Source: Desulfovibrionales bacterium (GTDB lineage: Bacteria; Desulfobacterota; Desulfovibrionia; Desulfovibrionales; Desulfonatronaceae). From it: 37,543 nucleotides of DNA. A program made the position numbers and the translations under genes. Every line of letters starts with the position of its first letter. Positions within the stretch are counted from its first letter, which is position 1. The stretch covers positions 1-37,543 of the forward strand of contig REDL01000031.1 in NCBI GenBank assembly GCA_007693505.1. Reading direction: 5' to 3'. Shown one piece after another: positions 13,339 to 26,148 of this stretch. The notes under the pieces are model-generated. The model was given only the letters and a program-made list of their open reading frames with translations, had not been told where the DNA came from and made no database searches.

Positions 13339-14742
13339 TCACAAACCCTGCGAATTTTCGCAGGCACGGCACTGTTTGGCGTAGCCGGCGGCGCTGTAGC
13401 CCGTCATGCCGCCCGCCACATTGGTGACGTCCTCAAAGCCCTGCCGCAGCAGGATGCTTGCCGCAAGGCTGGAGCGAATGCCGGAGCTGCAGATCACCAC
13501 CGTCGGAAGGTCCTTGCGCAGTTCCGACCAGCGATCGCGCAGGTCAGCCACCGGGATGTTCACCGCTCCCTGGATGTGGCTGTTGGCAAATTCGTTCGGG
13601 GCGCGCACATCCACCAATTGCAGGGCTGGTGCCGTACACATCCGGCCATGCAAAACCTCTTCGGAGATCTGCGGCACGCTCCGCGAGGCCAGTCCGGTCA
13701 CTGCCCAGCCCGGCATGCCGCCCTTGAGATACCCGACAACCCGGTCCACCCCCACTCGCCGGACCCAAAGGTTGGCCTCCACGGCTTGCTGATACCCCTC
13801 GGCCACCAGCAGAATGTCCTTGTCCGTGGGCAGCACCCATCCGGCAAAGGTGGGGAAATTGCCGTTGAGATCCAGGTGCCAGGCATTGGGGATATGCTGC
13901 CCGCCAAACGCATGATAGCCGCGCACATCCAGCACCAACACTCCGGGGTCGGCCACCCGCTCCCTGAACTGTCGGGCATCCAGTTCCACAAGACCAGGCA
14001 ACTCGGCAACCCGGCGTGGCCCTTTGCGGTTGATGTCGCTGCAGCGGCTGAAGTGATCCGGCGCCTCCGGCATGTTTTCCGTCAGGGACTTGATGAACGC
14101 GGCCTTGTCCGTATGCTGCAACGCGGCATTGAAGGCGCGCTCGTAGCCGATGGTACTTGTCTGCTTCGCGCCCATGGACCGGCCGCACAGCGATCCCGCG
14201 CCATGCGCCGGATAGACCTCGCAATAGTCCGGCAGCGTGAGCAGCTTGTCGTGCAGGCTGTGGTACAGCTTTGAAGCCAGTTCCTGGGCCGTATTCGGAA
14301 ACAGATCCGGCCGCCCGACATCGCCGACGAACAGGGTATCGCCGACAAAAACGCCGACAGGGCTCTCGGAGCGCGAGGTGTCCTTCACCACATAGCTCAG
14401 ATGCTCGGGCGTATGTCCCGGCGTTTCCAGCACCTCCAGGCGCATGTCCTCCAGCTCGATCACGTCACCCTCCACAAGCGGCTCATGGGCAAAGGTGCAC
14501 TGCGCCGATTTGGCCACATAAATTTTCGCGCCAGTTTGGGCCGCCAGATCCATGTGCCCGGAAATGAAGTCCGCGTGCAGATGGGTTTGCAGAATATGGG
14601 TGATCGTCACGCCCATCGCCCGCGCGGCCTGGATGTAGACCTCCACGTCGCGCTGCGGATCAATAACCGCGCAGCTCTTGCTGCCGGCCAGAATGTAGGA
14701 GCTGTGGGCGATCTTTTCGACAAAAAAATGTTTCAACAGCAT
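13339..14742 (-). CDS. CstB-like persulfide dioxygenase/double rhodanese
   Basis: A 467-residue three-domain protein. Residues 1-240 form a metallo-beta-lactamase fold of the ETHE1 type with THLHADFISGH (His54, His56, Asp58), His110, Asp135 and His180; His110 and Asp135 with His54 are the expected iron ligands. Residues 250-350 are a rhodanese-like domain lacking the active-site cysteine (VAEGYQQA in the loop). Residues 360-455 are a second rhodanese with Cys418 in the loop CSSGIRS. The same order occurs in staphylococcal CstB, which oxidises persulfide to thiosulfate. A good ribosome binding site (AAGGAAGG) precedes ATG 14742. Lying between two YeeE/YedE pairs, it probably processes imported or endogenous persulfide. 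The dioxygenase needs O2, notable in a presumed anaerobe. Confidence 0.9.
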   Translation of the reverse strand: MLLKHFFVEKIAHSSYILAGSKSCAVIDPQRDVEVYIQAARAMGVTITHILQTHLHADFISGHMDLAAQTGAKIYVAKSAQCTFAHEPLVEGDVIELEDMRLEVLETPGHTPEHLSYVVKDTSRSESPVGVFVGDTLFVGDVGRPDLFPNTAQELASKLYHSLHDKLLTLPDYCEVYPAHGAGSLCGRSMGAKQTSTIGYERAFNAALQHTDKAAFIKSLTENMPEAPDHFSRCSDINRKGPRRVAELPGLVELDARQFRERVADPGVLVLDVRGYHAFGGQHIPNAWHLDLNGNFPTFAGWVLPTDKDILLVAEGYQQAVEANLWVRRVGVDRVVGYLKGGMPGWAVTGLASRSVPQISEEVLHGRMCTAPALQLVDVRAPNEFANSHIQGAVNIPVADLRDRWSELRKDLPTVVICSSGIRSSLAASILLRQGFEDVTNVAGGMTGYSAAGYAKQCRACENSQGL

Positions 14743-15104
14743 ACGTTCCTTCCTTGAAATTGGGATGATGATTTACTGAAAGAAGACACAGACGGTGAGA
14801 CCACCAGCAGAACGAGCTGCCTCATGCCCCTGCCGGCGCGATGTTGGCCAATGAGGCAACGGGGCCGGCCAACAAAAAGCGCATCACGGAGATCCGGCAG
14901 GGCGGCAGGGCGATGGGACTGGGGGTGCGGACCGCTTGTGTTGTTTTCAGGGTCGGTGTGTGTTGAGAATTTTGGGGTGGGACCGGGGCACCAAACAGTG
15001 ATATAATCCAAAACAGACGGTTGTCGAGACGGAGCAGCTTAACTTCACGCTGACTCTTGTAGCTGCTCAAGAATTTCGGGCAAACTCCCCTGAGCACCCG
15101 TCAT

Positions 15105-15131
15105 GCCGGATGCGGCTATCGCCTTATCCGG
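15105..15131 (+). repeat. REP-like hairpin
   Basis: The stem CCGGAT/ATCCGG (15106-15111 with 15126-15131) is followed, after a two-base mismatch, by GGC/GCC around a TATC loop. The order of stem, bulge and inner stem is that of enterobacterial REP/PU elements, and the outer sequence is nearly that of the E. coli type. Its presence in a non-enteric genome is notable. Confidence 0.6.
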
Positions 15132-15175
15132 TCTGTCAGGAGTCCCGAAACCACGGCAGCAACGGTTTTGTGTAG

Positions 15176-15198
15176 CCGGACAAACGAAGCGTATCCGG
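15176..15198 (-). repeat. Second, divergent REP-like hairpin in opposite orientation
   Basis: CCGGA (15176-15180) pairs with TCCGG (15194-15198). On the minus strand it starts CCGGATACG and resembles the element 45 bp to the left with a degenerate inner stem. Two head-to-head copies would be a BIME-like arrangement. The match is weaker than for the first copy. Confidence 0.4.
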
Positions 15199-15298
15199 TG
15201 CCTGCCTGCCCTGGGTGATTAAGCAGTTACCAGGATTACTGTCTTCCGCCTTCTTTCCATGCGTCTTTTTGCTTCTGCACCGTTTTTTTTCTGGAGCA

Positions 15299-15826
15299 TC
15301 AGAGATTGTGTTTCTCAAAAAAACGAAAGAGAAAGCCCGCACCCACCGCAAGAGCAAGAATCACGAACCAGTGATTGACCCCCAGCATGTCGGCCACGGA
15401 AATCGGGCCATAATTCCCCATTGGCTGGATATGCTCTTGAACCATCGGATAGAGGAAGGCAAAAACAAGACCGCCGATCAGCATCCCCAGAATGGGCCAA
15501 ATAACATGGTAACGGCCTTCGGCCAGCGCGCCCAAGCTGGTTCCTGGGCAGTAGCCGATCAAGGCCCAGCCAACTCCAAAAAGCAAGCCCCCGATGATCT
15601 GCAACCCAAGGCTCAACGGCCGCGGATCAAAGCTGACCAGACCCAGATCCTTCAACAGGAAAATACCGATGGAGCCGACGACGATGGTCGTCAGCATAAA
15701 TTTGACAATGGTCATGTCCATCAGCCGCATGGCACCAACCTGCTTCTCATAGCGCAGTACTTCGGCCTGTTGCAAAAGCGCCCCAAAAAGTATTCCGGTA
15801 ATCAGACCAAATGCTAACGTCGTCAT
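15299..15826 (-). CDS. YeeE/YedE-family transporter half (pair B, C-terminal type)
   Basis: A 175-residue membrane protein, paralogous to the gene at 12196-12759. Start chosen at ATG 15826 behind AGGAGG; the longer frame to 16045 merely overlaps the upstream gene. Helices are continuous through the protein and the key motif IGYCPGT places Cys93 at the pore position. The start overlaps the upstream half gene in ATGA, so the two halves are likely made in equal amounts. C-terminal helix ends FRFFEKHNL. The 556-bp gap that follows separates it from the CstB-like gene, so it may or may not share that transcript. Confidence 0.87.
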   Translation of the reverse strand: MTTLAFGLITGILFGALLQQAEVLRYEKQVGAMRLMDMTIVKFMLTTIVVGSIGIFLLKDLGLVSFDPRPLSLGLQIIGGLLFGVGWALIGYCPGTSLGALAEGRYHVIWPILGMLIGGLVFAFLYPMVQEHIQPMGNYGPISVADMLGVNHWFVILALAVGAGFLFRFFEKHNL

Positions 15827-16353
15827 GACGACCTCCTGCCATAAAGAAAACGTGCCATGAAAATACCCCCGACAAAAAACATGACCAGAGCCAGAAAGCT
15901 GCTGACACCCAGTTGACTCACCCCACTTACACCGTGTCCGCTGGGGCACCCTCCAGCCATGCGCGCACCCACCATCAGCAGGATACCGCCGATAATGGAG
16001 TGACCGATCCGCAAACCGAGGCGATTGCCGAAGCGTTCGGCCCACATTGGTGGGAGCGGTTCGAGTTGAAAGGTTTTCGTGGCAATCGACGCCAGGAAGG
16101 CCCCAAGCGCAATGCCAATGACAAAAAGCAGTTGCCAGTCAGGAAAGGCCGCGCCAGTGAGAGAACCACCGCTTGCCTGGAAAAAAGCCAGGTGACTCAG
16201 ATCTATCCCTATCGAATTCGTGAGCCATGTCACCATGCGTGGAAAAGTTGTCGAGGTCCCGAAAAACTGTCCCGCAATGGCCACGCTGGCCACGAGCAAG
16301 AGGCCTGCCAGCCCCCCACAAATGTAAGGTTTCATCCATGCTCGACTTTTCAT
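15823..16353 (-). CDS. YeeE/YedE-family transporter half (pair B, N-terminal type)
   Basis: N-terminal-type half of the second split YeeE/YedE transporter, 176 residues, preceded by a strong AGGAGG. Cys136 in AGGCPSGHGVSG is conserved. The first pore cysteine seen in pair A (PLACSTTFAR) is replaced by threonine here: the matching segment is FFGTSTTFPR with Thr33. Loss of that cysteine suggests a different substrate or relay mechanism, an inference based on the known role of three cysteines in TsuA. It is the first gene of the minus-strand module, with a 448-bp gap upstream that must hold the promoter. Confidence 0.87.
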   Translation of the reverse strand: MKSRAWMKPYICGGLAGLLLVASVAIAGQFFGTSTTFPRMVTWLTNSIGIDLSHLAFFQASGGSLTGAAFPDWQLLFVIGIALGAFLASIATKTFQLEPLPPMWAERFGNRLGLRIGHSIIGGILLMVGARMAGGCPSGHGVSGVSQLGVSSFLALVMFFVGGIFMARFLYGRRSS

Positions 16354-16801: not shown

Positions 16802-19690
16802 TTATCCGCCCTGCTTCTGCGAAACCGCATACAGCCGGACCATGTGCAGGTCGTCGTAGGTGACGTTGCCGTCCAGAGCGTCAAATACCGGACGAAGTCG
16901 CTCGGTGCCGTGTGCGGCAAAGACGTCCAGGACCTGCAGGAGTTGCTCCGAGGGCAATGGGATCTGGCCCGCCAGGGTATCTCCGCGCACGTGATGGCCG
17001 GCCTGGGAGGCCTGCCAGAGATGGTGGACAACGGTGCCGGGCTTGACCGCGAAAATTTGGCTGATCTGGGCGATGGTCCGGCCCTGATGGTGCAGGGCCA
17101 GGACTTCCAGGGTTCGACCGCCAGGGCCTTCCGGCTGTTTGCGGGGTGCGGGCACATGGCCTGTTGGAGACTGCTCCGCGATGCCCCATTCCGCGCAATA
17201 GTCGCGCAGAACGGGCAGGAATTCCTCGGCATAGCGGGCCAGCTTGGTCTCGCCGACACCGTGCACTTTGGCCAGGGCCTCCGGCGTCTGGGGAAACATT
17301 GTGGCCATTTCCACCAGGGTCCGGTCCGAAAAAACCACGTAGGGTGGGACGTTGGCCGCCTCGGCCAGGGCCTTGCGCCTGGCGCGCAGCAGGGCAAAAA
17401 GCTTGGAGTCGTACTGCTCGCCCTCCGGACCGCTGGTGGGGGCCACCGGGGTGGGACGATCGTGAGCGGGCTGAATGCCCAGGACCTGGCGGCCGCGAAA
17501 GACCGCCAAGGCACCCTGGCCAAGTCGCAGACCACCATGCTCCATGTCCTGGATCAGCAGCCCCTGCTGGATGAACTGACGGGCCAGATGCTGCCACTGC
17601 TTTCGGGAATACTCCTGGCCGATGTTATACGTGGACAGTGCATCGTGACCGCGCCCCAGCACTTTTTCCGACCGGGAGCCGCGCAGCACGTCGATGATAT
17701 GGCTGGCACCGAACAGCTCTCCGGTGCGCTTGACGCAGGACAGGAACTTCTGGGCAGCCACGGTCATGTCCGCAAGCTCCTGTCGCGGCGTGCAGCAATT
17801 GTCGCACATTTCGCAGGATCCGCTCGGATAGGACTCGTTGAAATACCCCAGCAGGGGAATCCGACGGCAGACCGCGGACTCGGCGTAGCCGACCATGGCC
17901 TCCAGCTGCATCCGGGCCGATTTTTGCTGTGCCGGGTCCATTTTTTTGATGAACGAGACAGCGGTCTGCACAGCCCCGTAGGAAAACAGCAACAGACAGT
18001 CCGCGCGCAGTCCATCCCTTCCGGCCCGGCCCACCTGCTGATAGTAGCTCTCCAGATTCTTGGGCAGATCGTAATGCACCACGTAGCGGATGTCGGATTT
18101 GTTGATGCCCATGCCAAAGGCTACGGTGGCCACCATGATCCGGGCCTGGTCCCGGATGAATCGACGCTGGTGGCGCATCCGGGTCGGCGCGTCCAGGCCG
18201 GCGTGGTAAGGCAGCACGGAAAGCCCCTGAGCGCGCAACGCCTCGGAGAGCACGTCCACCTGCCTGCGGGTGGCGCAGTAGATGATCCCGGACTGGTCGG
18301 CCCGCTCCCGGACAAAAGCCAAAAGCTGACCCATGGCCTTGGACTTGGCCTGGGTTTTAGGCACGACCTCCAGGTAGAGATTATCCCGGTTGAAACTGGC
18401 CAGGTGGGTCTGGGCCTCGCTGATGCCCAGGGTATGCTTGATGTCCTGCCGGACCCGCTCCGTGGCCGTGGCCGTGACGGCCAGGCAGACCGCGCCGGGT
18501 AGCCGACGGCGAACATCCAGAAGCTGGCGGTACTCCGGGCGAAAATCATGGCCCCATTCGGAAATGCAGTGGGCCTCGTCAATGGTCAGACAGTCCACGG
18601 CCACGCTTTCCAGGAGCTGCAGAATTCCCGGCTGAAGCAGTGTCTCCGGTGCCGCGTACAACAGCTTGACCCGCCCGGCCCGCACCTCGGCCATCACGGC
18701 CTGGTACTCCTTGCTGGACAACGTGCTGTTCAGAAATGCCGCGGGCAGGCCCAGCTCCCGGGCCTGCATCACCTGATCCTCCATCAGGGCGATGAGCGGA
18801 GAAACCACCACGCTCACCCCTGGGAAGAGCAGGGCTGGAAGTTGATAGCACAGCGACTTGCCACTGCCGGTGGGCATGATGGCCAGGGTGTCCTGCCGGA
18901 CCAGGACATCGGCAACCACCTCGGCCTGCAGGGGCCGAAAAGCGTCATATCCAAAGACCTGCTTCAAGACGCTTGCCGGATCGGCACCGATGAACCGGCT
19001 CAAATCCGGAACAGCTCCAGATGCCAAAACGGGCTCGGGCCAGCAGGAGGCCTCAGCGGGACAACCACCTGGAAGATCACAAGGCATGTCCGCGTCCGTA
19101 GGCGGAGGGACATCGTCCCCCGGCGGCCCACTTGACCCGTCCGCCACCGATTCTCCCTCTTCCTCAGGGGGTGGCGGTTCCATATGGATCAGCCTCTCCG
19201 TCACGTGTTCCCGGCGCGCCAACACGGCTTCCTGCGAGAGCAACTCGCCGTGTTCGTCAATGTGGGTCACGGGCACGCCTACGGCGGCAAGGCCGGCACC
19301 GATCAGCGTTGCTCGGTGGCAATCTTCTGGCCTGGCCTCGCAACAGAGCAAGGCCACGCGACGTTGCTGCGCATATGCCGTGCGTAGCCGGTCAAGACCC
19401 CGGCGAAATGCCGGTGAGCGCGCAAGAGCGGCCATGTCCGCCCCGGATTCAGCGCCTCCCGCAACGCCATTTGGCAAGCCGCCCAAATCATCCCCCATGA
19501 AGACATAGCGCATACCGCCGCCTTTCAGGCGCTGTTCCAGGGCCTGCTTGGCATACTCCGGGCGGTTTTTGGAATAAGGTCGAGAGCGGACATCCAGGAG
19601 ATACTCGATCGCATGCCTTTGCAGCAGATCCAGTAGGTCCTCGATGGAGCGCGAGCCGTAGCCAATGGTAAAAACAGGGATCAAAGACAT
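16802..19690 (-). CDS. recQ: DUF488-RecQ helicase fusion
   Basis: A 962-residue ATP-dependent 3'-5' DNA helicase with an extra N-terminal domain. Residues 1-165 are a DUF488 domain (FTIGYGSRSIEDLLDLL, then LDVRSRPYSKNRPEY, then CCEARPEDCHR). A Pro/Asp/Glu-rich linker follows (170-225). The RecQ core has Walker A PTGSGKS at 273-279, DEAH at 371-374 followed by CISEWGHDFRPEY, and motif VI QQVGRAGRDG near 551-560. The RecQ zinc site is C608, C626, C629, C632. HRDC (about 760-830) and a C-terminal helix-turn-helix (about 858-945, TIAQISQIFAVKPGTVVHHL) complete it. Ordinary RecQ proteins of about 600 residues lack the DUF488 part. No frameshift is visible at the junction, so the fusion looks genuine. 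Role: recombination and replication-fork repair; the DUF488 function is unknown. Confidence 0.93.
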   Translation of the reverse strand: MSLIPVFTIGYGSRSIEDLLDLLQRHAIEYLLDVRSRPYSKNRPEYAKQALEQRLKGGGMRYVFMGDDLGGLPNGVAGGAESGADMAALARSPAFRRGLDRLRTAYAQQRRVALLCCEARPEDCHRATLIGAGLAAVGVPVTHIDEHGELLSQEAVLARREHVTERLIHMEPPPPEEEGESVADGSSGPPGDDVPPPTDADMPCDLPGGCPAEASCWPEPVLASGAVPDLSRFIGADPASVLKQVFGYDAFRPLQAEVVADVLVRQDTLAIMPTGSGKSLCYQLPALLFPGVSVVVSPLIALMEDQVMQARELGLPAAFLNSTLSSKEYQAVMAEVRAGRVKLLYAAPETLLQPGILQLLESVAVDCLTIDEAHCISEWGHDFRPEYRQLLDVRRRLPGAVCLAVTATATERVRQDIKHTLGISEAQTHLASFNRDNLYLEVVPKTQAKSKAMGQLLAFVRERADQSGIIYCATRRQVDVLSEALRAQGLSVLPYHAGLDAPTRMRHQRRFIRDQARIMVATVAFGMGINKSDIRYVVHYDLPKNLESYYQQVGRAGRDGLRADCLLLFSYGAVQTAVSFIKKMDPAQQKSARMQLEAMVGYAESAVCRRIPLLGYFNESYPSGSCEMCDNCCTPRQELADMTVAAQKFLSCVKRTGELFGASHIIDVLRGSRSEKVLGRGHDALSTYNIGQEYSRKQWQHLARQFIQQGLLIQDMEHGGLRLGQGALAVFRGRQVLGIQPAHDRPTPVAPTSGPEGEQYDSKLFALLRARRKALAEAANVPPYVVFSDRTLVEMATMFPQTPEALAKVHGVGETKLARYAEEFLPVLRDYCAEWGIAEQSPTGHVPAPRKQPEGPGGRTLEVLALHHQGRTIAQISQIFAVKPGTVVHHLWQASQAGHHVRGDTLAGQIPLPSEQLLQVLDVFAAHGTERLRPVFDALDGNVTYDDLHMVRLYAVSQKQGG

Positions 19691-19783: not shown

Positions 19784-20215
19784 TCAGGGAGCGCTCTCGA
19801 TGTCGTCCTGGGGAAACGATCCCTTGTCGATAAGGCCGTGGTTGCGCAGGATCTCCAGCAGCATTTCCGGTTCAAACGGTTTAGTCAGGTACGCGTCGGC
19901 GCGCTCCTCAAACTGGGCTTTGAGGATATTTTCGTAATCCGTCAGACTGGAAACCATCACCACCTTGGTCCGGATGCCGCCCAGACGCTGTTCTTCCAGG
20001 CGACGGATCATGCTCAGGGCCTGGTGGCCGTCCAGAACGGGCATTTCAATGTCCATCAGGATCAGGTCAAAGAGTTTCTTGTCTTCCAGAGAACGCACAA
20101 AGGCGCTTACGGCCTGTCTCCCATCCGCCACCTGAACAACATGGCCGTAGGGCACCACGATTTCCTGGAGGTGCTCCCGCATGCTTCGGCTGTCCTCGAC
20201 AATCAGGGTGCGCAT
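19784..20215 (-). CDS. CheY-like single-domain response regulator
   Basis: Receiver-domain protein of 143 residues without an output domain. The acidic pocket is E7/D8, the phospho-acceptor is D55 in LILMDIEMP, the switch residue is S89 or S90 in VVMVSS, and K112 lies in YLTKPF. Such proteins act by protein contact, as CheY does, or in phosphorelays. No histidine kinase is encoded in the window, so its partner is elsewhere. A good ribosome binding site (AAGGAGAG) precedes ATG 20215. It lies between the Rsm22-like gene (37 bp upstream) and the RecQ fusion (93 bp downstream), all on the minus strand. A 20-residue tail after the receiver fold ends DDIESAP. Confidence 0.92.
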   Translation of the reverse strand: MRTLIVEDSRSMREHLQEIVVPYGHVVQVADGRQAVSAFVRSLEDKKLFDLILMDIEMPVLDGHQALSMIRRLEEQRLGGIRTKVVMVSSLTDYENILKAQFEERADAYLTKPFEPEMLLEILRNHGLIDKGSFPQDDIESAP

Positions 20216-20252: not shown

Positions 20253-21704
20253 TTATGACTGGGAACGCTTTGGGCGACGGTTGTGACCATTGGACGTTGC
20301 CTTGGGATTTGTCCGCGGTTTACGATCCTCGCGATGACCCCTTGCCGGCGGAGAACTTGTTGCGGACTGACCTGACTGACCTGGCCTCGTGGTGGGGCTC
20401 GCCGCCTTTTTTTTCGGCCCGTCCATGGCCGGGAGCAGCTCCGCCACCAAGGCCCGACTTTTGGAATCACGTTTGGGTGGATCGTCCAGGCGGAAGCGGA
20501 CACAATCTCCTGAGCGGGTGGCGGAATGACCCGGCGGGGAAAGAATCAGCAGTTTGCCCTGGGCTGCGCAGCCATAACGCCCGACCATGGCCTCCCGGCC
20601 TTCCCGCATCCGGTCCGGCACGGAAAACTCGCCGCTGACGATGCGCGCCCATCCCTGGGGAAGAGGTCCCTCCCGCATCTGCTCTGAAGATGCATTGCGA
20701 TCCGGGTTCTGTTCGGCCTTCCGGTCCAAAAGCCGGTCTGGACTCCCGGGTCCGGCCAAATGCACGTAGCTCAAGCTGATATCCCGTTTGGGCAGATCGG
20801 CCTCCCGGGATAATTCCCTCAGCCACGGCGGACAACCCCGGGTGGACAGGGTGAAATGGCACCAGGAGGTCTCCCGGTGTTCAAGCATTGGGCAGGCTTG
20901 GTGATGGGTGCAAGGCCCAAGGACCTTCCACCCGCCGGCCACGGCCTCTTCCCGGGCCAGACTGACCAGCTTGCCGCCAAATCGATTGCCGGGCTCCACA
21001 AAAAGACAATGCCCTTCAGGACGGACATGCCCGGCCACGGTTTGGAAAAAACCGGCAACCTGCTCACTGAGAGGGTCCCGGCGATTCCACGGCAGTTCAT
21101 TCAAAAAATTGCCCGCGGTCAACAGGTCGGCTTGGGGCACGCTCTTGATGCCCACCTGCCATGGAGCATGAACAAGGTGAATCTTCCAGCGGCCGCGGCC
21201 CGCAACCAGGCCATTCTCGAGAATATCCACCAGACCATGATACAGTTTCCGGCCCTCGCGCATTGGCCTTGGCGTGGTGTCCAGGCAATGGAAGTGCAGC
21301 TCCCTGGCCAGCAGGTCCGGTCTGGCCAGGGCCAGAGCCTGGACCAGGGTCAGGGGGCCGGCTCCCAGATCCACCACTGTCCCCCCTTCAGGCGGGTCCA
21401 GGTTCAGCCCGCCCAACAGGCGGGTCATTCGCAACAGGTTCCAGGGCAGAAAGTACCAGAGATAGGCCCCCAGGGCGGCCGGTGCGTGCAGATAATCCCG
21501 GCCCAGGACCTCGGCGCGATCCTCAACCAGAAATGTGGATAGTTCCTGGATATTATCCGCCAGCTTGCGCCGATGCGCGGCCTTCATGGGCAGCACCGCG
21601 CGCAGCAGGTCGGCATAGCCTGCCAGGGCCCGCTCGGTTGCACCGCTGAGATCGGGAAACGGCGAGCGGGAACAGCCCGTGGCGCGTTGTAGGGCATCAG
21701 ACAT
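20253..21704 (-). CDS. Rsm22/METTL17-like small-ribosomal-subunit methyltransferase family protein
   Basis: A 483-residue Rossmann-fold protein of the Rsm22 family, whose mitochondrial members act in small-subunit assembly. Motif I is VVDLGAGPLTL (110-120). The four-cysteine signature PCTHHQACP...WCHF (C265, C271, C282, with C291 nearby) corresponds to the proposed 4Fe-4S site of METTL17. The N-terminal region (about 30-95) has the helical segment YLWYFLPWNLLRM. From about residue 415 the chain becomes a low-complexity Lys/Arg/Ser/Pro tail, probably RNA-binding or disordered. The start overlaps the ASKHA gene's stop by 8 bp, implying coupled translation. Catalytic activity in bacteria is unproven; the assignment is by motif. 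Confidence 0.8.
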   Translation of the reverse strand: MSDALQRATGCSRSPFPDLSGATERALAGYADLLRAVLPMKAAHRRKLADNIQELSTFLVEDRAEVLGRDYLHAPAALGAYLWYFLPWNLLRMTRLLGGLNLDPPEGGTVVDLGAGPLTLVQALALARPDLLARELHFHCLDTTPRPMREGRKLYHGLVDILENGLVAGRGRWKIHLVHAPWQVGIKSVPQADLLTAGNFLNELPWNRRDPLSEQVAGFFQTVAGHVRPEGHCLFVEPGNRFGGKLVSLAREEAVAGGWKVLGPCTHHQACPMLEHRETSWCHFTLSTRGCPPWLRELSREADLPKRDISLSYVHLAGPGSPDRLLDRKAEQNPDRNASSEQMREGPLPQGWARIVSGEFSVPDRMREGREAMVGRYGCAAQGKLLILSPPGHSATRSGDCVRFRLDDPPKRDSKSRALVAELLPAMDGPKKKAASPTTRPGQSGQSATSSPPARGHREDRKPRTNPKATSNGHNRRPKRSQS

Positions 21705-23403
21705 AATGAAAGACCAACCTTTGCGTGTAGTGTGCGAAAAAATCCGGCTCCTGGCCGACGGGCAAGGTCATGATCCGTGGGGCCATCTCTTCGATCCAGT
21801 CCCTGGCCTGGGAACTGGCCACCAGCAGGGCGGCCCCGGCCAGCGAGGTATTGCCCACGGGACGCATCCGCTCCCGGCTTCCCGGCGGGACAAAGCCCAG
21901 TTCCTCCAGCGCGGACAGGTCGACATGCTCGCCCAGGGCACCGGCCAAATAAAAGGCGCGTATCACACCCGGCGTCAGACCGGCCTCGGCCAGCAACCGA
22001 CTCATCGCCAGGTTGAACGCCGCCTTGACCTTGAGCACCTCCTCCACGTCGCGCCCGGTCAGAAAAACATCCGCACCCAGCACCAGGCGTCTCTCGCCGT
22101 GGACATCGGTCACATTCGCGCCGATGTTCCGAGCCAGCGGGCTTTGTCCGTCCGCAAAGCCCCCGGATCGTTTGAGAACCCCCAGACGCAGTAAGCCGGC
22201 CAAAAGGGCCAGATACCCCGTGCCGGATATACGCTGCCGATCCGGGGACGGAGACAGAGTGTGGGGTGCGTCGCGTTCCGGCATGGGCAGGGACCGGGCT
22301 CGCAACCCCAGCGGGGTCACGGCCACGTCCACCCAGACACCGGGCAGAGCCGCTGAACCGCAGGACATGCCGATACCCTCCAGGGCCGGGCCCATGGGCA
22401 CGCTGGCGGCCAGATAGTGCTCCGGCCCCAGGGCCAGAATGAATTCCCCGTTGGTGCCCAGATCCGCCAGAAGAAACGGGTAAGCGGGTCGGCCAGCATG
22501 GCCGAAGTGGATCGCGGCCAATCCGGCGCTCACATCGCCGCCAATGAACGGGGCCGGTTGCGGCGGAATGTAGGTTCGCCCGCCACAGTTACTGCTTCCG
22601 TCACGGCTTCCGGCCTTCTCCCATGTATACCCCTTTTGAAAAGGCAGCGATGTCCAGAACCCGCCGGGATGCGGTCTGCGGTAGGGCGCGACGGCCAGCC
22701 CTTGCAACGGCCAATCCAACAGCAGGGCGGTCATCACTGTGTTCCCGGCCACGCAGATCAAGTCCACCGTCGTCGGTATGGACCTGGTCAGGTCGTGCAG
22801 CCGGCGCACCACGACGTCCCTGAGCATCCGAGCATTTGTCTCCAACATCAAGGCAAAACCCAGCCGGGACATCACCTCGCTGCCCGCGGCCAGTTGCGGG
22901 TTCAGCTCGCGTCCCTGGGCCAGCACCCCGACATCGTCTCGCACCAGCCAGTCCAGCCCGGTGGTCCCCAGATCCACGGCCAGAGATAAGGAGCCGACGG
23001 CAGGTCGGCTCAGGGCGATCGCCCGATCCACTGCGTCAGATGATGGAAAAGCAAAGGGCAGGTGAACCGTCATCCCGCCCACAGCAGGACATCGGCAGGC
23101 CAGCCGCCCTCCCTGCTCCAGTTCTTCCGGAGACAAGGCCGCCAACTCGTCCGGTGTCGGTGTTTCGCCTGCACGATCCTTTGGCGATGCCGCGCCGGCA
23201 TCCGGACCGTTGGCCACATAAACCAGGCACAAACCGCATTTTCCCAAACCGCTGCAGAACGGCCGCGTCGGCCAGACCCGCTCCAGAAACAGCATCTGGG
23301 AGAGGGTTTGTCCGGGAATTGCCTGGATCAACCGCACCCGGCCCATCGTATCCTGGATCGTCAGCAATGCGTGGCCATCGGCCATCCCGGACAGACCGGG
23401 CAT
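21697..23403 (-). CDS. ASKHA-domain protein with N-terminal 2Fe-2S ferredoxin (corrinoid-activation type, DUF4445)
   Basis: Redox protein of the RamA-like family, which uses ATP to reductively reactivate corrinoid methyltransferases. I start at ATG 23403, just after GGGAGGTGAT, giving 568 residues; the TTG at 23460 has no such site. The ferredoxin domain holds C50, C56, C59 and C103 (FCSGLGKCGLC...ACRC). The ASKHA ATPase fold follows, with phosphate-binding loops AVDLGTTGLDW and LLADLGTNGEF and the segment FIGGDVSAGLAA. The C-terminal part contains the YLAGALGEHVDL segment usual in the family. No corrinoid protein or methyltransferase gene lies nearby, so the client is unknown. The stop overlaps the Rsm22-like gene by 8 bp. 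Confidence 0.85.
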   Translation of the reverse strand: MPGLSGMADGHALLTIQDTMGRVRLIQAIPGQTLSQMLFLERVWPTRPFCSGLGKCGLCLVYVANGPDAGAASPKDRAGETPTPDELAALSPEELEQGGRLACRCPAVGGMTVHLPFAFPSSDAVDRAIALSRPAVGSLSLAVDLGTTGLDWLVRDDVGVLAQGRELNPQLAAGSEVMSRLGFALMLETNARMLRDVVVRRLHDLTRSIPTTVDLICVAGNTVMTALLLDWPLQGLAVAPYRRPHPGGFWTSLPFQKGYTWEKAGSRDGSSNCGGRTYIPPQPAPFIGGDVSAGLAAIHFGHAGRPAYPFLLADLGTNGEFILALGPEHYLAASVPMGPALEGIGMSCGSAALPGVWVDVAVTPLGLRARSLPMPERDAPHTLSPSPDRQRISGTGYLALLAGLLRLGVLKRSGGFADGQSPLARNIGANVTDVHGERRLVLGADVFLTGRDVEEVLKVKAAFNLAMSRLLAEAGLTPGVIRAFYLAGALGEHVDLSALEELGFVPPGSRERMRPVGNTSLAGAALLVASSQARDWIEEMAPRIMTLPVGQEPDFFAHYTQRLVFHYV

Positions 23404-23463
23404 CCCATCACCTCCCGGCCCTCGGATTAGGGCGGAGTTTCCACCCTGGTTGTCGGCCAAGGG

Positions 23464-23678: not shown

Positions 23679-24638
23679 TCATTCCATGCTGAATGTCGCG
23701 GCCTCTTCCTCGAAAAATTGCCGGAGTTGTTGCTCCACCACCCCCCGATCCGCTGCCTGGATTTGCCATGTGGCCTCATAGCTGTCGCCTTGCATGGAAA
23801 AACCGCGCAGGACGATCCTGTCCATGGAGAGGCCCAGCCCGCGCAAATGTCGGTCAAAATCCTGGATGTCCCCGGCCGATTGCCACCCTGTGGTCACCAG
23901 GGTCAATCTGTCCGCGGCACCCTGGCGTAGCTGGTCCAGTCGAAAATAATTGCCCCACAGTTCGGCCCAGACATCCAGCATGTCCGAGCCTGAGGCAGTC
24001 CAAATCCGGCCTGCATGGTCCAGGGCCCCCTGCCAGGAACCGTCTCCAGATGCGGCCAAACGCAGGGTCAGCTCCTCGGTCCCGTCCCGGTGCAGCCCGG
24101 ACAACACCTCCAAATCCTGAAGGGAGGCCATGTGTTCCGCGCCCAGCCCCTGGGCCGCCAGGTGGTAGCCGATCTCTCTGCTCTGGGGAGAGGTTAGCCC
24201 AAGGGACTGGATAAATGCCCGCACTGCGTCCCGATTAACGTCCACGTTCAGGTGCAAGACCGCTCCCCACTCCGTACGCTGATACTCCTTTTCCTCCCAG
24301 CCCAAAACAAATTCCTGGGCCCGCGCCTTCAGTATCGTATTCAGGATTGAGCGTCGTTGCTCGCTTAATCCCTCCCGAAGCAGGGGCTGCGCCTCCTGGA
24401 CAACTCCTTGGGCCAGGGCCTGTCGGACAGCCGCAAGGCGAGGTTCCGATGCGCCGACATCGTCGGCTTCCACGAAGATGCGCACATCCTGACCGGCCAG
24501 GCAGATGGTCGCCGGGCCCAGCAACAAAGCTAGCGCCAGGATAAGCAGCGTATGCTGAAATCGATACGATACGTTATAGCATATTTTGTGAACTCGAGGC
24601 GGGACAAAACACCATTTTGGGGAAGTATTCTTTTGCAA
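23679..24638 (-). CDS. Exported protein of unknown function
   Basis: A 319-residue protein that I do not recognise. Start is TTG 24638, supported by AGGAGA eight bases upstream; no in-frame ATG precedes the hydrophobic segment. Residues 28-48 (LLILALALLLGPATICLAG) form a signal peptide or anchor, likely cleaved after the AxG-type site near residue 49. The mature part begins with DVRIFVEADD, contains a central VLHLNVDVNRDAVRAFIQSLGL region, and ends in a repeated alpha/beta pattern (SMDRIVLRGFSMQGDSYEATWQI). It has few cysteines and no enzyme motif. It lies between the miaA operon (upstream, 39 bp) and the RCKP gene, same strand; a possible terminator follows it. Periplasmic location is inferred. 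Confidence 0.7.
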   Translation of the reverse strand: MQKNTSPKWCFVPPRVHKICYNVSYRFQHTLLILALALLLGPATICLAGQDVRIFVEADDVGASEPRLAAVRQALAQGVVQEAQPLLREGLSEQRRSILNTILKARAQEFVLGWEEKEYQRTEWGAVLHLNVDVNRDAVRAFIQSLGLTSPQSREIGYHLAAQGLGAEHMASLQDLEVLSGLHRDGTEELTLRLAASGDGSWQGALDHAGRIWTASGSDMLDVWAELWGNYFRLDQLRQGAADRLTLVTTGWQSAGDIQDFDRHLRGLGLSMDRIVLRGFSMQGDSYEATWQIQAADRGVVEQQLRQFFEEEAATFSME

Positions 24639-24677
24639 ACGTGTCTCTCCTGTCGATATAAAACCATGCTTTCAGAT

Positions 24678-25658
24678 TCACTCGATATCGTCGCTCCCAG
24701 GGCGGTTGGCCACAAGGCTGTCCACCAGCCGGAGCACAGCCGAGGGTTCTCCGGCCGGAATCCAGTGCACTCCGGCGATGTTGTTGAACCAGGTCTCCTG
24801 CCGCTTGGCATATGCCCTGGTCCGAAAAAGCCAAAGGTCCTTGGCTTCCTCGAGTGTTTTTTGGCCTTGCAGATGGGCCAGCAATTCCCGACAGCCAATG
24901 CCGGAAAAGCCCGGAGCCTCCGGATCCGGGCAGCCATCCCAGGCTCGTTGGATTTCCTGAAGCGCACCCAGTTCCAGCATCAGGTCAATCCGCCGAGCCA
25001 GGCGATCGTGCAGTTCCGGTCGGGGCAGACGCAGACCGATGACGCACAGATCCAAACCCTGGGTGGAGCGGGCCTGGGTATGCCACCAGCTCAGCGGCCG
25101 GCCCGAGGCCTGGAAGACCTCCAGTGCCCGGCAGACCCGCTGCCGGTCCCGAGGGTGAATCCGGGACGCGTACGCCGGGTCGACAGCCGTCAATCTGGCG
25201 TGCAATGCCTCAGAGCCCTGCGTCGTACACGCATCAAGCACCGCACTGCGCACCTCTGCGGGTACCTGTGGGATATCCGCCAACCCCCCTGCCAAGGCGC
25301 GCAGATAAAGACCCGTGCCTCCCACGAGAATGGGCATTCGCCCGCTTTCCCGGCAGGCGATCAACCCTTGCCGGGCCTCGTCCATGAACCTGCCTGCGGA
25401 AATGGTCTCGTTCATGGCCAAAAAGCCATACAGCAGGTGCGGGCACTGGGATTGCTCCCCATCGCCGGGCTGGGCGGTGATGATAGGCACGTCCCGGTAG
25501 ACCTGGCGAGAGTCCGCGTTGACCACGCTCACGGGATAATGCCGGGCCAAGGTCAGGGCCGCGGCGGTCTTGCCGGTCCCAGTGGCGCCCACGAGACAGA
25601 TGATCCGGGTTGGCTGCCCATCGGCAAACCCTCCGCATTCAGGCTGCTCGCGCTCCAT
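24678..25658 (-). CDS. miaA: tRNA dimethylallyltransferase MiaA
   Basis: Transfers the dimethylallyl group from DMAPP to N6 of A37 in tRNAs that read UNN codons. Start chosen at ATG 25658 behind AGGAGA, giving 326 residues; 19 further in-frame codons upstream are inside coaD and look spurious. Features visible: P-loop GATGTGKT, NADSRQVYRDVPIITAQP (the DSxQ tRNA-recognition motif), LVGGTGLYLRALAGG, and the C-terminal FRTRAYAKRQETWF, which binds tRNA and DMAPP. The 5' end overlaps the 3' end of coaD by 20 bp, so the two are probably co-translated. Products of MiaA are usually thiomethylated by MiaB, not encoded here. Confidence 0.96.
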   Translation of the reverse strand: MEREQPECGGFADGQPTRIICLVGATGTGKTAAALTLARHYPVSVVNADSRQVYRDVPIITAQPGDGEQSQCPHLLYGFLAMNETISAGRFMDEARQGLIACRESGRMPILVGGTGLYLRALAGGLADIPQVPAEVRSAVLDACTTQGSEALHARLTAVDPAYASRIHPRDRQRVCRALEVFQASGRPLSWWHTQARSTQGLDLCVIGLRLPRPELHDRLARRIDLMLELGALQEIQRAWDGCPDPEAPGFSGIGCRELLAHLQGQKTLEEAKDLWLFRTRAYAKRQETWFNNIAGVHWIPAGEPSAVLRLVDSLVANRPGSDDIE

Positions 25659-26148
25659 ACTTCTCCTGCAACCGTTTGAGCACCACCTCCGGCACCAGCC
25701 CCTGCACCTCACCATGCAGCTTGGCGGCTTCCTTGATGATGGTGGAACTGATGTACAACCACTTGTAATCGGTCATTAAAAACATGGTCTGCAGACCGCG
25801 GTTCAGGCGACGATTCATCAGGGCCATCTGGAATTCGTACTCGAAGTCCGACGTTGCCCGCAAACCGCGCAGGATCACGCTGCCTCCGCGATTGCGCACA
25901 TATTCAACCAACAGTCCGGCAAACCCCTCGGCTATCACCCGCGGCTCCGGGGCGAAAACCTCGTTGACCATCTCCAGACGTTCCTCCAGAGTGAAAAGCG
26001 GGGTTTTGGGTGTGTCCCAGGCCACGGCCACGATGATCTGATCAAAAACCTCCAGCCCGCGTCGGATCAGACTGACATGACCGTTGGTCAACGGGTCGAA
26101 CGTGCCGGGGTAGACGGCGATGCGTTTCTTGCAAAAATTTTTGTCCAT
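25639..26148 (-). CDS. coaD: Phosphopantetheine adenylyltransferase
   Basis: Fourth step of coenzyme A biosynthesis: forms dephospho-CoA from 4'-phosphopantetheine and ATP. The 169-residue length is normal. The nucleotidyltransferase motif GTFDPLTNGH (TxGH) lies near residues 15-24. Other family marks are ILRGLRATSDFEYEFQMALMNRRL and the C-terminal YISSTIIKEAA with the ISS motif. It follows rsmD by 37 bp and overlaps miaA by 20 bp, so rsmD-coaD-miaA is probably one operon; rsmD-coaD neighbours are common in bacteria. Confidence 0.97.
   Translation of the reverse strand: MDKNFCKKRIAVYPGTFDPLTNGHVSLIRRGLEVFDQIIVAVAWDTPKTPLFTLEERLEMVNEVFAPEPRVIAEGFAGLLVEYVRNRGGSVILRGLRATSDFEYEFQMALMNRRLNRGLQTMFLMTDYKWLYISSTIIKEAAKLHGEVQGLVPEVVLKRLQEKYGARAA

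What the first reader, a model, noticed from the sequence alone, without database searches (positions are those of the whole stretch)
16802..19690. DUF488 domain fused to a complete RecQ helicase
The first 165 residues form an intact DUF488 domain with its LDVRSRPYS and CCEARPEDCHR motifs, joined by an acidic, proline-rich linker to a full RecQ with zinc site, HRDC and HTH. DUF488 has no established function; its fusion to RecQ points to a role on DNA, for instance in processing damaged or modified bases ahead of the helicase.
Basis: partly seen in the sequence, partly recalled or inferred. Interest (0 to 1): 0.6.

Follow-up and report, generated by a model that had tools for sequence, protein, structure and literature searches.

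The report
DUF488 enzyme domain fused to RecQ
A bacterial DNA-unwinding enzyme (RecQ) carries, on the same chain, an uncharacterised cysteine-containing domain whose separate-gene relatives sometimes sit beside RecQ in a candidate virus-defence operon, which gives a concrete lead on what that unknown domain does.

Summary
Window 16802-19690 (-) is one open 962-residue gene: DUF488 (PF04343), acidic proline-rich linker, complete RecQ and HTH_40. It is no assembly error: 6 of 8 genomes of the genus (Desulfonatronum, inferred) carry it, at one locus in the 5 with enough flank, with dN/dS below 1 in each domain. Outside the genus I found no other DUF488-RecQ fusion, but surveyed one phylum only.

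In 6 of 121 examined loci a RecQ belongs to it, each time fused to DuOB, in two opposite domain orders. The fused RecQ groups with four of these six, not with its order's RecQs. The DUF488 model resembles tetrapyrrole methylases and dual-specificity phosphatases; its Cys/Asp/Arg/His residues are near-invariant.

Best reading: a single-chain, DuOB-less derivative of that module, in which RecQ presents DNA to a cysteine enzyme acting probably on strand ends. Coupling is well supported, chemistry inferred, base repair unsupported. New variant of a known kind.

The parts
16802..19690 (-). DUF488-RecQ fusion gene, 962 aa
   Evidence: open frame; Pfam and NCBIfam domains; same architecture in 6 of 8 genus genomes
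19226..19690 (-). DUF488 domain, residues 1-155 (Pfam core 15-129 = 19304-19648); in the model a last helix runs on to residue 169
   Evidence: Pfam; AlphaFold2 model pLDDT 84.7, pTM 0.81
19583..19597 (-). LDVRS motif, residues 32-36; D33 and R35 invariant
   Evidence: 124 of 124 DUF488a rows have D33 and R35
19313..19345 (-). CCEARPEDCHR motif, residues 116-126, putative active site (C116, E118, C124, H125, R126)
   Evidence: C116, C124 and R126 each in 123 of 124 rows, the other row gapped; strand 112-116 then helix 125-136 in the model
18995..19225 (-). acidic, proline-rich linker, residues 156-232
   Evidence: composition; highest dN/dS of the six regions, 0.44-0.60 in five pairs
19082..19117 (-). 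conserved short stretch DDVPPPTDADMP in the linker, residues 192-203 (DADMP in all fusion rows)
   Evidence: alignment of the fusions; function unknown
17972..18973 (-). RecQ helicase core, residues 240-573
   Evidence: Pfam DEAD, Helicase_C; motifs at 273, 371, 551
17792..17971 (-). RecQ zinc-binding domain, residues 574-633
   Evidence: Pfam; C608, C626, C629, C632
17462..17779 (-). RQC domain, residues 638-743
   Evidence: Pfam
17210..17404 (-). HRDC domain, residues 763-827
   Evidence: Pfam
16835..17107 (-). HTH_40 domain, residues 862-952
   Evidence: Pfam
19784..20215 (-). response regulator receiver protein, upstream neighbour, syntenic in the genus
   Evidence: Pfam; directly beside the fusion in G001, G003, G006 and 2.2 kb away in G007
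20253..21704 (-). Rsm22-like methyltransferase, syntenic flank
   Evidence: Pfam
21697..23460 (-). RACo-type ASKHA protein, syntenic flank
   Evidence: Pfam

Best explanation
The gene makes one protein in which a cysteine-dependent DUF488 enzyme domain is tethered by a flexible acidic linker to a full RecQ helicase. It is most likely a single-chain derivative of a multi-gene module (RecQ joined to DuOB, plus DUF488a and DUF488b; DuOB, DUF488a and DUF488b are PADLOC candidate PDC-M45) that has lost DuOB and DUF488b and is now kept at one chromosomal locus in Desulfonatronum. Proposed working: RecQ/RQC/HRDC/HTH load on DNA and unwind it; the exposed strand or its end is handed to DUF488, whose C116/C124 with D33, R35, R126 and H143 do phosphate- or sugar-type chemistry on the end (phosphoryl removal or transfer). 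SHOWN: the fusion, its conservation, dN/dS below 1, retention of the family's near-invariant residues, recurrent RecQ-DUF488 operon linkage, RecQ phylogeny, phosphatase/methylase-like fold of the model. INFERRED: descent and losses, that the domain is catalytic, that the substrate is DNA, that the chemistry is at strand ends, and whether the present role is defence or repair.
For: Fusion in 6 of 8 genus genomes, at one locus in G001, G003, G006, G007 and the window, dN/dS of the DUF488 part 0.13-0.37 in five pairs. In 121 loci (100 phylum stretches order/class stretches, L003): 97 DUF488a alone, 11 a+b, 7 a+b+DuOB, 6 a+b+(DuOB fused to RecQ). RecQ-DuOB occurs in two domain orders in two places of the RecQ tree, so DuOB and RecQ were joined at least twice, and the DUF488-RecQ chain is a further joining. 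Fused RecQ lies in a 14-row clade (SH-aLRT 100 in a quick tree of 62 rows; bootstrap/SH-aLRT 100/100 in a careful tree of 32 of them) with 4 of the 6 DuOB-RecQs and one RecQ followed by DUF488b alone; grouping it with its order's RecQs is rejected (p-AU 1.8e-44). Fused DUF488 groups with the DUF488a of the L003 triad (SH-aLRT 99). PADLOC names L128's DuOB, DUF488a and DUF488b PDC-M45A, B, C. Of four plasmid triads opened, two lie within 5 kb of Csm6/Csx16/Cas1 or CBASS genes. Model: KAP phosphatase Z 9.3 over 125 residues, laforin 8.8, PRL1 8.7. Putative active-site residues near-invariant in 124 rows.
Against: No catalysis is shown. Cysteine spacing C116-X9-R126 is not the CX5R loop of classical phosphatases/rhodaneses. 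The best fold matches are SAM methylases (Z 9.8), tied with phosphatases; Foldseek alone gives no match with E <= 0.001, and its weak list mixes methylases and phosphatases with SRP GTPases, Csa3, recombinases and toxins. Of the 121 loci, 97 have DUF488a with no RecQ or DuOB found in reach and 7 have the triad without RecQ, so DUF488 often does without RecQ. The PDC-M45B model also hits lone DUF488 (L226, 3e-56, better than the fusion's 1.5e-39), so it is no proof of system membership; the DuOB of L003 hits no PADLOC model. 3 of the 14 RecQs of the clade have no DUF488 in the stretches fetched. Two of four plasmid triads opened have no defence gene that I recognised nearby. The locus does not look like a defence island: ten neighbours gave three PADLOC hits, to generic-looking response-regulator and methylase models. 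2 of 8 genus genomes lack the gene.
Confidence: 0.45

Rival explanations
1. DUF488 is a sensor or regulator: it binds a nucleotide-type ligand (for example an ADP-ribose product or alarmone) and gates RecQ, without chemistry on DNA.
For: The related DUF4326 clade is proposed in print to act on ribose phosphates of ADP-ribose products (PMC9503650, passages). L003's triad lies next to a TIR gene. A ParB-CTPase-fold protein with a DUF488-HTH part binds CTP (PMC12704722, passage), though the ParB fold may be the binder. A flexible linker suits a regulatory head.
Against: The putative catalytic residues are near-invariant over 124 rows, which a binding-only role would not obviously require.
Confidence: 0.25
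2. One reading: the domain removes or processes damaged or modified bases ahead of the helicase.
For: Fusion to RecQ; recurrent operon linkage.
Against: The 50 fold matches shown are phosphatases and methylases, no glycosylase, nuclease or deaminase.
Confidence: 0.1
3. Bystander fusion: two operon neighbours were joined by chance and the DUF488 part adds nothing to RecQ.
For: Only one genus was found with this exact fusion; the linker evolves fast.
Against: DUF488 dN/dS 0.13-0.37 in five pairs; D33/R35/C116/E118/C124/H125/R126 kept in all fusion rows; six further RecQs joined to the same module through another domain.
Confidence: 0.12
4. Rhodanese-type sulphur transfer, for example onto or off phosphorothioate DNA.
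For: Two conserved cysteines; sulphate-reducing host (recalled); rhodanese and sulphur-transport genes lie next door at 13339-16353.
Against: That neighbourhood is not kept in the genus: the rhodanese gene is found in none of five genus stretches, the two sulphur-transport genes in one, L092 (L096 is short); the gene tables name no sulphur gene.
Confidence: 0.08

Closest known systems
PADLOC candidate system PDC-M45 (DuOB PF22557 + two DUF488)
   Same: The fused domain hits PDC-M45B (E 1.5e-39); its RecQ belongs to the clade that holds four of the six RecQs built into that module.
   Different: DuOB and DUF488b were not found here and the helicase is on the same chain as DUF488 instead of DuOB.
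DNA helicase RecQ (TIGR01389)
   Same: Helicase, zinc, RQC and HRDC domains complete; 707 bits vs cut-off 640.
   Different: N-terminal DUF488 plus linker, C-terminal HTH_40; not the RecQ lineage of its own order.
[quoted passage not shown] content recalled, only its title seen in a reference list)
   Same: DUF488 family, phosphatase/diphthine-synthase-like model; as recalled, that paper predicts DNA-end processing and roles in conflict systems.
   Different: I could not read it, so whether it already lists a DUF488-RecQ chain or the RecQ-DuOB operon is unknown.

Membership tests
RecQ DNA helicase | TIGR01389 equivalog score over cut-off; DEAH helicase core | tested here: met
   707.3 bits vs 640.2; DEAH at 371
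RecQ DNA helicase | zinc site with four cysteines, RQC, HRDC | tested here: met
   C608, C626, C629, C632
DUF488 (PF04343) | Pfam gathering score | tested here: met
   65.2 bits vs 22.2
DUF488 (PF04343) | conserved DxR and CxE...CHR residues kept | tested here: met
   kept in all fusion rows; each in 122-124 of 124 DUF488a rows
PDC-M45 (PADLOC) | M45B component | tested here: met
   1.5e-39 over residues 1-160, but the model is not specific: lone DUF488 L226 scores 3e-56
PDC-M45 (PADLOC) | M45A component (DuOB) in the genome | tested here: not met
   0 of 8 genus genomes; positive control: 3 of 3 triad genomes match in the same kind of search
PDC-M45 (PADLOC) | M45C component (second DUF488) | tested here: not met
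   one PF04343 match in the own genome, while DUF488b of L159 and L164 match PF04343 at about 1e-22; N3a model 0 of 1
rhodanese-phosphatase superfamily | fold | tested here: inconclusive
   KAP Z 9.3, laforin 8.8, PRL1 8.7, but methylases 9.8 and diphthine synthase 9.2 tie; Foldseek E > 0.001
rhodanese-phosphatase superfamily | conserved cysteine at a strand end before the next helix | tested here: met
   C116 ends strand 112-116, helix begins at 125; 123 of 124 rows, one gapped; catalysis not tested
rhodanese-phosphatase superfamily | classical CX5R loop | tested here: not met
   C116 to R126 is CX9R by the sequence; so classical phosphatase/rhodanese membership is not claimed
DpdF (PADLOC label for RecQ-like helicases) | score beyond that of ordinary RecQ | tested here: not met
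   two RecQs without DUF488, L253 and L104, score higher (905 and 800 bits) than the fusion (699)

The most novel reading that the evidence does not exclude
The fusion is a minimal one-protein version of a RecQ-driven anti-phage module: RecQ unwinds DNA and feeds strand ends into a cysteine enzyme of a new catalytic kind (DUF488) that strips or transfers the terminal phosphate/sugar, so DUF488, which matches both bacterial and archaeal control genomes, is a DNA-end-processing enzyme.
Probability: 0.25. Interest if true: 0.8.

Novelty: new variant of a known kind. Interest (0 to 1): 0.52.

Why it matters
DUF488 occurs in bacteria and archaea (6 of 14 control genomes) and I saw no tested function for it. 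A single polypeptide that joins it to a helicase with standard assays makes its substrate directly testable, and the repeated joining of RecQ to the DUF488/DuOB operon gives a candidate defence system a mechanistic handle.

Tried and rejected
Assembly or frameshift artefact: rejected. Other long DUF488 frames in the phylum (G364 715, G399 604, G685 434): read by eye as chance frame extensions in GC-rich DNA; G468 (469 aa) left open. DpdF label for the helicase: rejected by control. RecQ linkage of lone DUF488: no RecQ in reach in any of the 97 DUF488a-only loci. Fused RecQ as a vertical copy of the order's RecQ: rejected (the grouping was named after the tree had been seen). Long-branch worry in the quick RecQ tree: a careful mixture-model tree of 32 of the 62 rows gave the same 14-row clade. 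Viral contigs: none of 68 candidate stretches encodes a relative. Phages: 1 record of 50,697, 25% identity. Plasmids: 87 records with DUF488, 40 listed, none annotated as RecQ under the match. PDB by sequence: nothing better than E 0.014 (single sequence) or 0.11 (profile). Full-length AlphaFold2 model from two sequences: pLDDT 36, not used. Defence-island reading of the window's neighbours: not supported.

Survey limits: outside the phylum only a close-relative scan of genome contigs, plasmids, phages and viral contigs were looked at; other phyla may hold the fusion. Not fetched for the count: 17 of 117 non-own phylum rows (near the bottom of the list or partial; one lies inside a fetched stretch), 6 of 28 standalone order rows, 19 of 41 non-genus class rows. 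Stretches cut by contig ends can hide neighbours, so the RecQ/DuOB counts are lower bounds. The chance estimate treats loci as independent; the six come from 4 families (P of at least 4 is 0.0007 at one RecQ per genome). The ORF comparison missed genes (the fusion itself in L094) and was redone with tblastn.
Full report
Observation. The gene at 16802-19690 (-) is a single open frame of 962 residues. Pfam finds DUF488 at 15-129, DEAD, Helicase_C, RecQ_Zn_bind, RQC, HRDC and HTH_40 in order, and NCBIfam calls the rest RecQ above its cut-off. The quoted motifs, the four zinc cysteines and the helicase motifs are present. The own genome has one PF04343 match only, this one.

Reality of the fusion. 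A scan of genome contigs gave one named genome with the same chain, a Desulfonatronum MAG (L002), and a planctomycete with the DUF488 part alone (L003). L002 is the reverse complement of the contig of G004, a member of the window's genus, so the window is taken as Desulfonatronum; this is an inference. Six of eight genomes of the genus, the window's included, carry the full chain; in the other two assemblies (G002, G005) no DUF488 and no RecQ of this type was found. The gene follows RACo, Rsm22-like and response-regulator genes in G001, G003, G006 and the window, with about 2.2 kb more in between in G007; G004's contig is too short to tell. G002 and G005 keep RACo and Rsm22, but no response regulator or fusion was found in the stretches fetched. 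Identity of five other fusions to the window is 63-93% for DUF488, 32-71% for the linker and 81-91% for the helicase core; pairwise dN/dS is 0.13-0.37, 0.44-0.60 and 0.10-0.18. Within the fast linker, DADMP is kept in all fusion rows.

How widespread. In the order 34 of 199 genomes have a DUF488 match, six of them this fusion, the other 28 in frames of 167-281 aa. In the class 46 of 297 (5 fused), in the phylum sample 114 of 395, the window's own the only fusion recognised. Long frames in G364, G399 and G685 look, by eye, like chance read-through in GC-rich DNA; G468 is undecided. Plasmids: 87 of 72,556 records, phages: 1 of 50,697.

The module. I fetched wider stretches for 100 of 117 non-own phylum rows and for 20 further rows of the order and class, and with L003 searched 121 loci for DUF488a, DUF488b, DuOB and RecQ, using small home-made profiles for the first three and one RecQ sequence. 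97 had DUF488a alone, 11 a+b, 7 a+b+DuOB, and 6 a+b plus DuOB fused to RecQ (L128, L132, L136, L159 as RecQ-DuOB; L153, L164 as DuOB-RecQ). Pfam confirms the DuOB and RecQ domains for L128, L159 and L164, HTH_40 included, and DuOB for L003. In all 13 DuOB loci the genes run the same way, overlapping or at most 27 bases apart except in L191 (94 and 101). About 0.39 RecQ-bearing loci were expected by chance at one RecQ per genome, 0.78 at two. RecQ was seen only where DuOB was (6 of 6; Fisher p 4e-7 on non-independent loci). PADLOC names the three parts in L128 PDC-M45A, B and C, a candidate defence system; L003's DuOB hits no PADLOC model. No held paper names PDC-M45, and none holds both DUF488 and RecQ. 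DuOB occurs in 20 plasmid records. I opened four: in Allochromatium the triad is next to Csm6 and within 5 kb of Csx16 and Cas1; in Agrobacterium it is about 4 kb from a CBASS cyclase; in Rhodovastum an SNF2 gene follows but no defence gene that I recognised; in a Citrobacter plasmid the neighbours are plasmid genes, and DUF4326 stands where a second DUF488 would.

Origin. In a 62-row quick RecQ tree the six fused rows are one clade inside a 14-row clade (SH-aLRT 100) with four DuOB-RecQs, L246 (RecQ followed by DUF488b, no DUF488a or DuOB found) and three RecQs with no module in the stretches fetched; none of the 24 order RecQs is in it, and 23 of them lie on the far side of the tree. A careful mixture-model tree of 32 of these rows gives the same clade at 100/100. 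Holding fused and order RecQs together is rejected (p-AU 1.8e-44; 1.8e-68 without L105). In a 124-row quick DUF488a tree the fused rows group with L003's triad DUF488a (SH-aLRT 99), within a 42-row group (90) that holds 12 of the 13 triad rows. DuOB was found in 0 of 8 genus genomes, while 3 of 3 triad genomes match in the same kind of search. So the gene most likely descends from the RecQ-DUF488 module, gained from outside the order, with loss of DuOB and DUF488b; the direction is inferred, the trees are not rooted.

Fold and active site. A model of residues 1-170 from four sequences has pLDDT 84.7 and pTM 0.81. Foldseek gives no PDB match with E <= 0.001. VIA-align ranks tetrapyrrole methylases (Z 9.8), KAP phosphatase (9.3, 125 residues, rmsd 3.3), diphthine synthase (9.2), laforin (8.8) and PRL1 (8.7); rows within 1 of each other are tied. 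Such a mix fits what I recall of Burroughs and Aravind 2023, who unite phosphatases, rhodaneses and diphthine-synthase-like methylases and predict DNA-end processing for this clade; I saw only its title. PMC9503650 (passages) puts DUF4326 in the same superfamily with a proposed action on ribose phosphates. Of 124 DUF488a rows, D33 and R35 occur in 124; C116, C124 and R126 in 123 (one gapped); E118 and H125 in 122; H143 in 120. C116 ends a strand and R126 opens the next helix, as in cysteine phosphatases, but the spacing is CX9R, not CX5R.

Neighbourhood. Ten neighbours of the fusion were scanned against PADLOC: seven gave nothing, the response regulator a weak PDC-M60B hit and two methylases mad2 hits, which I read as generic family matches. 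The rhodanese gene at 13339-14742 was found in none of five genus stretches and the sulphur-transport pair in one.

Judgement. My own odds: coupling of DUF488 to RecQ near 0.85; descent from the PDC-M45-type module near 0.7; an active cysteine enzyme near 0.7; DNA-end phosphate or sugar chemistry near 0.35; present role in defence or repair open, the conserved locus speaking for a domesticated function. Base repair has no specific support. The finding is a new single-chain variant of a known, untested kind.

Noticed in passing
L281:908-6001 (own genome, G000:C65): A 1697-aa protein joins a RecQ-like DEAD helicase to a UvrD helicase on one chain (Pfam); open frames of 1705-1712 aa with a RecQ-like match in 5 of 8 genus genomes.
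   Followed up: partly
window 19082-19117: Linker stretch DDVPPPTDADMP is conserved in an otherwise fast linker; faintly like the acidic SSB tail that RecQ binds (recalled), but internal, so only a hint.
   Followed up: no
L003:311-5573: Planctomycete triad DUF488a-DUF488b-DuOB followed by a TIR protein (Pfam) and what looks like a type I methylase (HsdM, by eye), a defence-like set.
   Followed up: partly
L294 (Citrobacter freundii plasmid): DuOB-like gene, DUF488 and DUF4326 in a row: DUF4326 seems to replace one DUF488.
   Followed up: no
L090:2-1411: 469-aa open frame with a roughly 330-residue N-terminal part of unknown kind before DUF488 in G468; fusion or chance frame not decided.
   Followed up: no
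window 13339-16353: Metallo-beta-lactamase with rhodanese domains and two sulphur-transport genes next to the fusion; not conserved there in the genus.
   Followed up: partly
window 23679-24638 and 24552-25679: Two overlapping opposite-strand frames conserved in four genus genomes (44-85% identity) without a Pfam match.
   Followed up: no
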